This document shows positions 46,607 to 48,769 of a stretch of 64,000 nucleotides of DNA, one piece after another. Both the position numbers and the translations under genes were made by a program. Below the pieces are notes generated by a model. The model saw only the letters and a list, made by a program, of their open reading frames with translations, ran no database searches and was not told the DNA's origin. The DNA is taken from contig NZ_CP039373.1 in NCBI RefSeq assembly GCF_000179235.2, forward strand, positions 682,032 to 746,031, in the 5' to 3' direction. Every line of letters starts with the position of its first letter. The stretch's first letter is position 1. This DNA comes from Synechococcus sp. CB0101 (GTDB lineage Bacteria; Cyanobacteriota; Cyanobacteriia; PCC-6307; Cyanobiaceae).

Positions 46607-47052
46607 TCTCCGATGAGATGCAAGCTGAGCTGACGCTGATGGGCGCGAGCCCGGTGCTCCCAGAGATACACGGCCTGCCAGGTTCCCAGCAGCAGGCGGC
46701 CCCGCTCAAATGACAGGCCGAGGCTGGTGGTGGTTAAGGCTGTCCGGATGTGAGCCGGCATGTCATCAGGGCCTTCATCATCGTGGGCATAGCGCTGCAA
46801 GCTGCCCTCACCACTGAGAGAGCGCACTCCCTCCTGGGGCACCAGAGCCCGCAAATAGGTGGTGAGATCACGCAGTACACGGGGATCAGCGTTTTCGTTG
46901 ACCGTGAGTGAGCAGCTGGTGTGCAACGCCACCAGCTGGGCAATGCCCTGCTGCAGGCCGCTCGACGCAATCTCACGATTCAGTGCCGCCGTGAGATCCG
47001 TGAAGCCCTCACCGCTGGTTTGCACAGCAAGGCGGCTGAGGTGCTGACGCAT
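46603..47052 (-). CDS. YjbQ/UPF0047 family protein
   Basis: The 149-residue protein matches the UPF0047 family: GIAQLVALHTSCSLTVNENADP (conserved His, Thr and Asn), HDDEGPDDMPAHI and the C-terminal LGTWQAVYLWEHR. E. coli YjbQ has thiamine-phosphate-synthase-like activity as a side reaction; the real role is not settled. ATG at 47052 is chosen because conserved sequence starts there. It heads the YjbQ-cupin-PCD-GAP unit and faces the CRP-type site at 47112. Confidence 0.92.
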   Translation of the reverse strand: MRQHLSRLAVQTSGEGFTDLTAALNREIASSGLQQGIAQLVALHTSCSLTVNENADPRVLRDLTTYLRALVPQEGVRSLSGEGSLQRYAHDDEGPDDMPAHIRTALTTTSLGLSFERGRLLLGTWQAVYLWEHRARAHQRQLSLHLIGE

Positions 47053-47111
47053 GAACGGAACGCGTGATGGGCGAGGCCTGCAACCTAGGGCGCTTCTCCC
47101 CTCCAGCACAC

Positions 47112-47129
47112 CTGTGACCAAGATCACAG
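47112..47129. promoter_or_regulatory. Perfect CRP-type palindrome TGTGA-N6-TCACA
   Basis: CTGTGACCAAGATCACAG matches the cAMP receptor protein consensus in both half sites and extends it by one base on each side. It is in the 176-base gap between divergent genes: 60 bases upstream of the YjbQ start and 100 bases upstream of the calcium-loop gene. A second TGTGATCA half site follows at 47141. In cyanobacteria SYCRP1 binds this motif and controls motility and surface genes. Confidence 0.6.
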
Positions 47130-47228
47130 CGGAGCTTGTCTGTGATCAACAGCTGCGACGAAGAACCGGGCGAAGGTATGTGCATCGGAGGCAAAACAAC
47201 CTCCTCAACCACACACCCACTCAAAACA

Positions 47229-47678
47229 ATGGCAGGCTTCGGTTTCTCTGGCGATCTCGGCAACGTTGACACTCTCACCGGCATTGGCTGGTCATTTGAA
47301 GGTTTCTCTAAAGGCAAAGGGGCCAAGAAAGAAATCAACATGAACGGCAGCGTTGATGCTGATGGCAGCTTCGAATCCAACTTTCAAGCTCGCGGCAAGA
47401 AAGTGAAAGGCTGGCTGAATGTCGAAGACATCCAGGGCGACGGGATCGACGCAAGCTTCACCTACCAGGGAAAAGACTATGAGTTCACACCGGGAGACCG
47501 CGTGAAGATCAAACTCACCAAAAAAGGCCGTTTTCAAGTGATAGACCACGACCTCTCCTTGGACAACGAGCGGACCCCTACCGGCAACGGCGATCTCACA
47601 GGCGGCGGCACCGACCCGGTGACTGGCGGCGGTGAAGACGGCACCGCTGGCACGGGCGACACAGCCTTCCGTGACTGA
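47229..47678 (+). CDS. Unknown protein, N-terminal part of a gene broken by in-frame TGA
   Basis: This stretch gives 149 residues before the stop. The first 100 or so form a beta-rich, Lys/Asp/Gly domain (MAGFGFSGDLGNVDTLTGIG, NMNGSVDADGSFESNF, KVKGWLNVEDIQGDGIDASF), followed by a flexible Gly/Thr linker. There is no signal peptide. The reading frame continues in the same frame after TGA 47676-47678 for another 89 codons, including an EF-hand-like loop. Either this is the full protein or the gene was longer. ATG at 47229 is preferred over 47136 because sequence before it is low in complexity. Confidence 0.6.
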   Translation: MAGFGFSGDLGNVDTLTGIGWSFEGFSKGKGAKKEINMNGSVDADGSFESNFQARGKKVKGWLNVEDIQGDGIDASFTYQGKDYEFTPGDRVKIKLTKKGRFQVIDHDLSLDNERTPTGNGDLTGGGTDPVTGGGEDGTAGTGDTAFRD

Positions 47679-47948
47679 ATCAGCCTGCTGGATGCCAACG
47701 GCGATGGGGTGTTCAACCGTGAGGATCTGTTGCTCAATCCGGGGCGTGTGTCGCTCTTCGAGAACGCCGAGCTGAGCCCTGGCGCCCTGGAGGCCATCGC
47801 AGAACAACAGAACCCGATCGGCTCATTGGTGGATGTCTTCACGGCACTAGGATCCGGCTTCGACAGCGGCGAACTGGTGAATCTGTTCAACCGCGATGTG
47901 ATCAACCCTCCCAATCTCCTGGGTGATTCTGGCTTCGGTGGCCTGTAA
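47679..47948 (+). pseudogene. C-terminal part of the calcium-loop gene, same frame after TGA
   Basis: Directly after the TGA, in the same frame, lies ISLLDANGDGVFNREDLLLNPG. DANGDGVFNRED has ligands at positions 1, 3, 5, 9 and 12 of an EF-hand or dockerin-type calcium loop. About 60 more residues follow, rich in Leu, Asn and Gly, to the stop at 47946-47948. A separate start could be GTG at 47709, but it is inside the calcium loop and has no ribosome binding site. Stop-codon mutation, sequencing error or readthrough are all possible. Confidence 0.55.
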
Positions 47949-47978
47949 GTCTGCCTTCAAAACAACAGTGCTCACCCC

Positions 47979-48003
47979 AAGCCCCGCCATGGCGGGGCTT
48001 TTG
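47979..48003 (+). terminator. Terminator after the calcium-loop gene
   Basis: AAGCCCCGCC and GGCGGGGCTT form a near-continuous palindrome ending in T residues, 31 bases after the second stop codon and not after the first. This suggests that the transcription unit extends through the sequence after the in-frame TGA. Confidence 0.8.
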
Positions 48004-48086
48004 CTGCAGCAGCCTGGGTAGGCTGGCCCACAGGCGCATCCGTTGCTGTGAACCAATTTCCCGAGATCAAAAGCTTGGTCACAGGC

Positions 48087-48338
48087 ATGAAGCAGCCCAC
48101 GGTTCGGTGGGTGGCTGCCTGTGCATGTCTGGGGCTCTCACTTGGAATCAGCGCACCCGCCCTGGCTCAGCGGGTGGTGCCCAAGATCGGCAACATTTGC
48201 CCGCTGGGTTACGTGGACACCTTCAACGGCAAGTGCTCCACGCTCGGCTTGATGAGTTACACGTTGCAGCCCACCAACGGCCAGGCCTGCCCATCGGGCT
48301 GGATGAATGTGGGCGGTGGCTACTGCCGCGAAAAATGA
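48087..48338 (+). CDS. Small secreted Cys-rich protein, unknown
   Basis: The 83-residue precursor has a signal peptide (about 1-27, ending PALA) and a mature region with four Cys (GNICPLG, GKCSTLG, GQACPSG, GYCRE), likely two disulfides. The CPLGY / CPSGW repeats suggest a duplicated small motif. ATG at 48087 fits the signal peptide; an upstream GTG (48048) would add 13 residues. The stop overlaps the start of the next gene (ATGA), so translation is coupled with the DCC-family protein. Confidence 0.7.
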   Translation: MKQPTVRWVAACACLGLSLGISAPALAQRVVPKIGNICPLGYVDTFNGKCSTLGLMSYTLQPTNGQACPSGWMNVGGGYCREK

Positions 48339-48769
48339 GCGCCCCCCAACAACCAGCCCTCACGTTGCTGTACGACGGCGGCTGTCCGCTCTGCGTGCGG
48401 GAAGTGACCTTCCTGAAGCAGCGCGACCAGCGCCTGCACCCCAGTAGCCCGCGTTTGGCGTTTGTCGATATCGACGCTGCGGACTACGACCCGAACCATC
48501 ACGGGGGCATCACCTACCGCGAAGCGATGGGGCGGATTCACGCCATCGAAGCCGACGGCACGGTGCTGCGAGATGTGGAGGTGTTTCGCGCGGCCTACCG
48601 GTTGATCCAGCTGGGTTGGCTCTACGCACCCAGCGGCTGGCCTGTGCTGCGCGGGATCGCCGATGGGCTCTACGGCCTGTGGGCGCGCTGGCGCCTGCCG
48701 CTAACGCGCCGCCCGAATCTGGATCAGCTCTGCAGCTGTCGATCAGAAGCGCCGCCGCATCATTCGTGA
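48335..48769 (+). CDS. DCC-family thiol-disulfide oxidoreductase-like protein (DUF393)
   Basis: The 144-residue protein has the family hallmark LLYDGGCPLCVREV (CxxC preceded by YDG) and then FVDIDAADYDP, both typical of DUF393. The thioredoxin-like fold with CPLC suggests redox activity, but no substrate is known. Its gene is coupled to the secreted Cys-rich protein upstream, so it might help form its disulfides (inference). The last 27 bases overlap the convergent DUF2721 gene. Confidence 0.88.
   Translation: MSAPQQPALTLLYDGGCPLCVREVTFLKQRDQRLHPSSPRLAFVDIDAADYDPNHHGGITYREAMGRIHAIEADGTVLRDVEVFRAAYRLIQLGWLYAPSGWPVLRGIADGLYGLWARWRLPLTRRPNLDQLCSCRSEAPPHHS

What the first reader, a model, noticed from the sequence alone, without database searches (positions are those of the whole stretch)
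47229..47948. EF-hand-type gene broken by one in-frame TGA
The frame before and after TGA 47676-47678 is the same, and the sequence after it begins ISLLDANGDGVFNRED, a full calcium loop with the helix start just before it. The likely terminator lies after the second part, not after the first. A recent nonsense mutation, readthrough or a sequencing error would all give this picture. If it is readthrough, the product would exist as a short form and a long calcium-binding form.
Basis: partly seen in the sequence, partly recalled or inferred. Interest (0 to 1): 0.7.

Follow-up and report, generated by a model that had tools for sequence, protein, structure and literature searches.

The report
Secreted-protein gene with premature stop
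A picocyanobacterial gene for a probably exported, calcium-loop protein carries a single stop codon where the four relatives found have tryptophan; most likely this is a recent inactivating mutation (or a base error), not a designed two-product gene.

Summary
Window 47229-47948 is one frame cut by TGA 47676-47678, and the part after it is homologous coding sequence. Four relatives in the same genus (three full-length genes, one fragment at a contig edge) run through this point, all with TGG (Trp) there. None ends at the first stop. So this is a one-base change, seen in this genome only, in an otherwise intact gene. The part after the stop is as constrained as the part before (dN/dS 0.12 in both against the nearest relative). 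A codon model limits neutral evolution to about a tenth of this branch. The stop is recent, an error, or read through.

Nothing points to programmed readthrough: TGA ends 43 of 56 mapped ORFs, RF2 is present (38), none of 46 tRNAs found reads UGA (40, 48), SelB is under cut-off (39), and no structure beyond shuffles follows the stop (33). Ordinary leakiness would insert the ancestral Trp at some low level.

A lead outside the question looks more interesting: a promoter of CRP-type site, FNR-like site and 24-nt box, shared in related genomes with RTX-protein, double-glycine-peptide and pilin genes.

The parts
47113..47128 (+). CRP-type palindrome TGTGACCAAGATCACA
   Evidence: 10 of 10 consensus positions; also 10 of 10 in the three orthologues with upstream sequence
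47136..47149 (+). second CRP/FNR-like palindrome TTGTCTGTGATCAA, centre 22 bp from the first
   Evidence: 7 of 8 positions of TTGA-N6-TCAA; 26 of 27 comparable sites score 6 or more
47168..47191 (+). conserved 24-nt box GGGCGAAGGTATGTGCATCGGAGG, probably -10 element, start site and start of the leader (inferred)
47187..47204 (+). possible leader hairpin GGAGG...CCTCC
   Evidence: read from the sequence; the pair is also present in the three orthologous leaders
47229..47678 (+). first part of the gene: 149 codons and TGA; beta-sandwich domain plus Gly-rich linker
   Evidence: model of residues 1-112, mean pLDDT 74.6
47676..47678 (+). in-frame TGA at a Trp codon (TGG) conserved in 4 of 4 relatives
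47679..47948 (+). second part: 89 codons and TAA; conserved C-terminal domain
47691..47726 (+). EF-hand/dockerin-like calcium loop DANGDGVFNRED
   Evidence: ligand positions invariant in 5 of 5 sequences; weak Pfam EF-hand_1
47979..48000 (+). probable intrinsic terminator hairpin after the second part
   Evidence: not listed by the consensus scan

Best explanation
A gene that encoded one protein of about 239 residues in the ancestor has acquired a single nonsense change (a Trp codon turned into TGA) in this strain. The ancestral product had an N-terminal Ig/transthyretin-like beta-sandwich, a Gly-rich linker and a C-terminal domain with one EF-hand/dockerin-like calcium loop. It was probably exported or on the cell surface, and made under a CRP-type promoter. 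The main product is now a 149-residue stub that lacks the calcium-loop domain and the native C-terminus. If export uses a C-terminal type I signal, as is usual for RTX proteins (two of which share its promoter type), the stub would also not be exported (inferred). Ordinary leaky decoding of UGA by tRNA-Trp probably still makes a little full-length protein with the ancestral Trp, but this is incidental. Shown: the stop, its absence in four relatives, conservation after it, promoter motifs and terminator hairpin intact. Inferred: export, calcium binding, loss of function, leakiness.
For: One frame before and after. Orthologues G064, G281 and G150 are uninterrupted genes, 85, 69 and 63% identical over the whole length, and fragment G251 covers the site; TGG in 4 of 4. 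The downstream part is not decayed: 89 codons without a second stop and without an indel against G064; dN/dS against G064 is 0.119 before and 0.121 after the stop. Omega on this branch after the stop is 0.068, and omega = 1 is worse by 6.6 lnL. A neutral fraction of 0.1 of the branch costs 2.05 lnL, 0.2 costs 3.56. TGA is a working stop: 43 of 56 mapped ORFs end in it, RF2 scores 479 bits, 46 tRNA genes found include one Trp (CCA) and no UCA anticodon, SelB's best match is 194 bits against a cut-off of 242 (in its controls 2 of 14 genomes pass the cut-off). UGA misreading mainly inserts Trp (passages of PMC11126739) and +4A favours it in E. coli (passage of PMC5289835); here the next base is A.
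Against: Reads were not available, so a base-calling error remains possible. Only one genome per species is held, so the stop cannot be shown to be fixed. Polarised counts after the stop are tiny (4 synonymous, 4 non-synonymous on this lineage; 8 and 4 on G064's), and synonymous sites against the outgroups are close to saturation. The same model before the stop was unstable (omega ran to its bound). Preserved downstream sequence is equally expected if readthrough keeps it useful. A 147-aa stand-alone relative of the first domain exists in the same genome (L015, 29% identity), so the stub might still do something. PMC11126739 (passages) reports that G lowers termination efficiency right after the stop and does not single out A, so the value of +4A is not agreed. 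The tRNA-Sec model itself was not searched.
Confidence: 0.72

Rival explanations
1. The TGA is an assembly or base-calling error and the living strain has an intact gene.
For: Downstream sequence looks fully constrained; one base explains everything; a single genome is held.
Against: The assembly is one contig, 99.95% complete. Of 57 mapped ORFs of the syntenic relative, no other has, by my reading, a stop inside conserved sequence, so the local error rate looks low.
Confidence: 0.15
2. Functional UGA readthrough: a short form and a long calcium-loop form are both made and selected for.
For: UGA followed by A is a leaky context for tRNA-Trp in E. coli (PMC5289835 passage) and the residue inserted would be the conserved Trp; downstream coding sequence conserved; a likely terminator hairpin lies after the second part.
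Against: TGA is found in this genome only; 4 of 4 relatives have TGG. The A after it is inherited (G064 and G150 also have ATC there). No stable structure in the 61 or 85 nt tested (z +0.8 and +0.6). No UCA-anticodon tRNA.
Confidence: 0.08
3. Tolerated truncation: the beta-sandwich domain works alone and the C-terminal domain was dispensable, so the stop is neutral or adaptive rather than inactivating.
For: A stand-alone 147-aa relative of the domain in the same genome; the domain also heads longer, otherwise different ORFs in G200 and G150.
Against: C-terminal domain conserved in 4 of 4 relatives.
Confidence: 0.04
4. Recoding as selenocysteine or a reassigned genetic code.
For: None beyond the in-frame TGA.
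Against: Homologues have Trp, not Cys; SelB below cut-off; no UCA-anticodon tRNA among 46; TGA ends 43 of 56 mapped ORFs.
Confidence: 0.005

Closest known systems
Single-nonsense pseudogene / recent null allele
   Same: One stop in an otherwise intact, conserved gene; sense codon in the four relatives found
   Different: Loss of function not shown; error not excluded
Natural UGA leakiness (tRNA-Trp misreading, as in E. coli reporters; passages of PMC11126739 and PMC9481147)
   Same: UGA, and the ancestral residue is Trp
   Different: No measurement in this organism; in one reporter study Pseudomonas rates were 148-272 times lower than E. coli (PMC9481147 passage), so the level is unpredictable
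EF-hand / dockerin-type calcium loop (PF00036; dockerin chain 2y3n_B)
   Same: DxNxDGxxxxxD loop after a predicted helix; conserved in 5 of 5
   Different: Single loop; Pfam E = 0.12, under the cut-off; PDB profile hit E = 0.14
CRP (SyCRP1-type) regulated promoters of cyanobacteria (passages of PMC2633013)
   Same: TGTGA-N6-TCACA palindrome
   Different: An extra FNR-like palindrome and a 24-nt box at fixed spacing; a 16-letter core of the box was found in 0 papers of the held library

Membership tests
Pseudogene by nonsense mutation | Premature in-frame stop relative to orthologues | tested here: met
   4 of 4 relatives TGG
Pseudogene by nonsense mutation | Product non-functional | not testable with these tools
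   No expression or phenotype data
Programmed stop-codon readthrough | Stop codon conserved in relatives with coding conservation beyond it | tested here: not met
   Stop in 1 of 5 genomes only
Programmed stop-codon readthrough | Stimulatory downstream structure or context | tested here: inconclusive
   No structure beyond shuffles in the 61 and 85 nt folded; +4A context is favourable by one paper but inherited
Selenoprotein | SelB over its cut-off | tested here: not met
   Best 194.4 of 242.25 bits
Selenoprotein | tRNA with UCA anticodon; Cys or Sec at the site in homologues | tested here: not met
   None among 46 tRNAs found with the general tRNA model (the tRNA-Sec model was not searched); Trp in 4 of 4 homologues
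EF-hand protein (PF00036) | Profile score over the curated cut-off | tested here: not met
   12.4 of 25.4 bits
EF-hand protein (PF00036) | Conserved calcium-ligand positions in the loop | tested here: met
   D5, N7, D9, G10, D16 of the second part invariant in 5 of 5
CRP-type regulon member | TGTGA-N6-TCACA upstream, conserved in orthologues | tested here: met
CRP-type regulon member | Binding and cAMP dependence | not testable with these tools
   10 cNMP-binding domain matches in the genome; which one acts, if any, is unknown

The most novel reading that the evidence does not exclude
A CRP-controlled exported protein whose calcium-loop domain and C-terminus are now added only by leaky UGA decoding as the ancestral Trp, so that a stop codon has become a dial between a short and a long form (the probability given is for this). 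A separate novel reading that also stands, and that I hold about even: the gene belongs to a so far undescribed picocyanobacterial export regulon (RTX proteins, double-glycine peptides, a pilin) marked by a CRP site, an FNR-like site and a 24-nt box at fixed spacing.
Probability: 0.08. Interest if true: 0.6.

Novelty: new member of a known kind. Interest (0 to 1): 0.27.

Why it matters
As a nonsense allele it is ordinary: it warns that annotation could miss the second part or call a pseudogene, and it gives a clean natural test of UGA leakiness in a picocyanobacterium, because misreading restores exactly the ancestral residue. The promoter in front of it may matter more: it ties the gene to a set of exported proteins and bacteriocin-like peptides in aquatic cyanobacteria, whose regulation could be tested directly.

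Tried and rejected
Reassigned code, selenocysteine and suppressor tRNA: rejected. A structure driving readthrough: none above shuffles in two stretches folded. Internal restart: the ATG just after the stop (47692) is out of frame and the first in-frame ATG/GTG/TTG is GTG 47709, inside the calcium loop, so reinitiation is unlikely. Named relatives: the first genome-contig scan gave none, the second only VGPP01000029.1, a MAG titled Cyanobacteria bacterium M_surface_7_m2_037, whose contig has the same length as that of G281. Two viral-contig scans found no relative. Rfam, permissive search of 46900-48400: seven matches, all under their gathering scores. NCBIfam: no family for the read-through protein. 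Whole-protein structure model too poor to use (mean pLDDT 43.6). First-domain model (74.6): only middling matches, best Z 8.2 (6fwv_A, rmsd 2.9, 86 aligned), then 7.5 and lower, among them Ig/CnaB/transthyretin-like folds; Foldseek gave no E at or under 0.001. The upstream TTG start (47136) that lengthens the frame: rejected as coding, since the 24-nt box lies in all three frames relative to the ATG among the sites read, and in G150 out of frame with the gene. Paper searches for a CRP link to double-glycine peptides, bacteriocins or pilins in Synechococcus: 0 papers in each of three. Two searches on readthrough were used for their listings, from which two papers were opened for passages; (stop codon readthrough, cyanobacteria, UGA) listed five papers, of which I opened one for passages.

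Full report
What is there. The window lies in a 2.79-Mb single-contig genome, 99.95% complete. The only named relative fetched is titled a cyanobacterial MAG, and I take the organism to be a picocyanobacterium of the Synechococcus/Cyanobium kind (inferred). ATG 47229 opens a frame that meets TGA at 47676-47678 after 149 codons. The same frame continues for 89 codons to TAA 47946-47948. Upstream is a divergent UPF0047 gene; downstream are a 96-aa ORF without a Pfam family and a DCC1-like thiol-disulfide oxidoreductase gene. The UPF0047 and DCC1-like neighbours lie in the same order in G064; the 96-aa ORF was not among the mapped G064 ORFs.

Is the second part real? Yes. Searched alone, it matches 5 of 400 genomes drawn from the family, all in one genus: this genome and four others. 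Searched with the read-through protein, the genus (25 genomes held) gives six genomes with a match: this one, three full-length orthologues (G064, G281, G150), one fragment at a contig edge (G251), and one weak match to the first domain only (G200). 19 of the 25 have no match, so the gene is patchy (several of these genomes are incomplete). The orthologues are 85, 69 and 63% identical to the read-through protein.

The codon. At the stop the five sequences read TGA (this genome) and TGG in the other four. Trp is thus the ancestral residue on the evidence at hand, and one base separates the alleles. No orthologue ends there.

How old is it? Against G064, dN/dS is 0.119 over 137 codons before the stop and 0.121 over 89 after it; against the more distant G281 and G150 it is higher after the stop (0.27 and 0.45) than before (0.17 and 0.11), but pairs that do not involve this genome show the same tilt (0.21-0.36 after, 0.12-0.15 before), so this is a property of the domain. 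A codon model on the four full-length sequences gives omega 0.068 for this branch after the stop; setting it to 1 costs 6.6 lnL, and freeing this branch gains only 1.5 in twice the lnL. If evolution had been neutral since the stop arose, a neutral share of 0.1 of the branch already costs 2.05 lnL and 0.2 costs 3.56. So the stop is young compared with the split from G064, or not in the living cells, or without effect because it is read through. Limits: polarised counts are small (4 synonymous and 4 non-synonymous on this lineage after the stop; 8 and 4 on the other), synonymous sites against the outgroups are near saturation, and the pre-stop branch test was unstable (omega hit its bound).

Is TGA a stop in this organism? 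Yes: of 57 mapped ORFs, 56 could be followed to their end, and 43 of these finish with TGA (8 TAA, 5 TAG). RF2 scores 479 bits against a cut-off of 370. All 46 tRNA matches found were read for anticodons: one Trp gene with CCA, none with UCA; the tRNA-Sec model was not searched. The best SelB match is 194.4 bits against 242.25; 2 of 14 control genomes pass. Neither of two stretches folded at and after the stop beats shuffles. Papers, passages only: TGA is the most error-prone stop in an E. coli reporter library and is mostly read as Trp (PMC11126739; there G, not A, after the stop lowered termination); [quoted passage not shown] coli (PMC5289835, citing older work); UGA readthrough was about 12% in E. 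coli but 0.08% and 0.04% in two Pseudomonas species with the same reporter (PMC9481147). The base after this TGA is A, but G064 and G150 have the same codon there after TGG, so the context was inherited.

Assembly quality. Of 57 non-overlapping ORFs of G064 mapped to the window, four carry stops in the window copy: this gene; two with stops within the first 20 or so alignment columns, which I read as lying before the true start; and a short 49%-identical ORF which I read as spurious. A general error problem is not visible; a single error is not excluded.

What the protein is. No Pfam or NCBIfam family passes its threshold. The first domain is modelled as an all-beta sandwich (mean pLDDT 74.6, seven sequences) with middling matches, many to Ig/CnaB/transthyretin-like folds, some of surface proteins (Z 8.2 and below). 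Weak relatives of it (26-31% identity) head longer ORFs in G200 and G150 and make up a 147-aa ORF in this genome; a further weak match lies in G130. A Gly-rich linker follows. The second part begins within a predicted helix (residues 143-156, low confidence) and carries one loop DANGDGVFNRED, conserved in 5 of 5. EF-hand_1 is found at E = 0.12 only, and a dockerin chain at E = 0.14. Calcium binding is plausible and untested.

The promoter (found in passing). Upstream lie a perfect CRP-type palindrome (47113-47128), an FNR-like palindrome (47136-47149, 22 bp centre to centre) and a 24-nt box (47168-47191). With up to 3 mismatches the box occurs twice in this genome; the second copy precedes a 499-aa ORF. 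A slightly looser form occurs in 41 of 400 family genomes; the backwards control pattern matched in one genome in the table (G149). I read the 36 sites in 35 loci held (window, L075, L009-L011, L077-L106); more sites were listed without loci and not read. Of the 36, 27 have a CRP-type site scoring at least 8 of 10 at 54-56 nt (23 of them 10 of 10) and nine do not. The rate for 8 or more at all positions of the 30 loci is 168 of 86,544, the true sites included. Of the 27, 26 score 6 or more of 8 for TTGA-N6-TCAA at the fixed place; background 574 of 88,644. These sites include orthologues and are not independent. 25 of the 27 have an ATG-started ORF close behind; 19 of these 25 were scanned for families. 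Ten in Pfam: RTX repeats over the cut-off in two and under it in a third, a prepilin-type N-terminus in one, nothing in six. Ten in NCBIfam (the pilin again): CCRG-2 RiPP leader over the cut-off in two and under it in three, a cerein-like bacteriocin over the cut-off in one, nothing in three that to my eye also carry a double-glycine motif. The box is in all three frames relative to the ATG, so it is not coding. My inference: activator sites centred near -41.5 and -63.5, with the box holding the -10 region (G, A and T of GAnnnT-like GATGGT invariant in 27 of 27) and the first transcribed bases. The CRP consensus, a -10 box about 22 bp behind it, and SyCRP1's role in type IV pili of Synechocystis are known (PMC2633013, passages); here 22 bp separate the second palindrome from the presumed -10. 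A 16-letter core of the box is in 0 papers of the library.

Verdict. Functional readthrough is possible but unsupported (0.08).

Noticed in passing
window 47113-47191; second copy near G000:C1:938927-939005 (L075); L081-L106: Conserved promoter of a CRP-type palindrome, an FNR-like palindrome 22 bp on, and a 24-nt box at fixed spacing, in front of genes for RTX proteins, double-glycine peptides, a pilin and unknown ORFs of about 320-500 aa in related genomes.
   Followed up: partly
L015 1408-1851, minus strand (own genome, around C1:266058-266372): A stand-alone 147-aa relative (29% identity) of the first domain of the broken gene.
   Followed up: partly
L012 1459-2907 (G200), L014 1429-2727 (G150): The same domain at the head of longer ORFs; in L012 the first listed ATG/GTG/TTG is at 1912 although the frame is open from 1459, so its start codon is unclear.
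   Followed up: no
L089 1501-1552: Two copies of the 24-nt box on opposite strands a few bases apart, making a long inverted repeat in front of a cerein-like peptide gene; perhaps a hairpin variant of the leader.
   Followed up: no
window 47187-47204: GGAGG...CCTCC in the leader could hide a ribosome-binding sequence some 38 nt before the ATG; similar pairs follow the box at several other sites.
   Followed up: no
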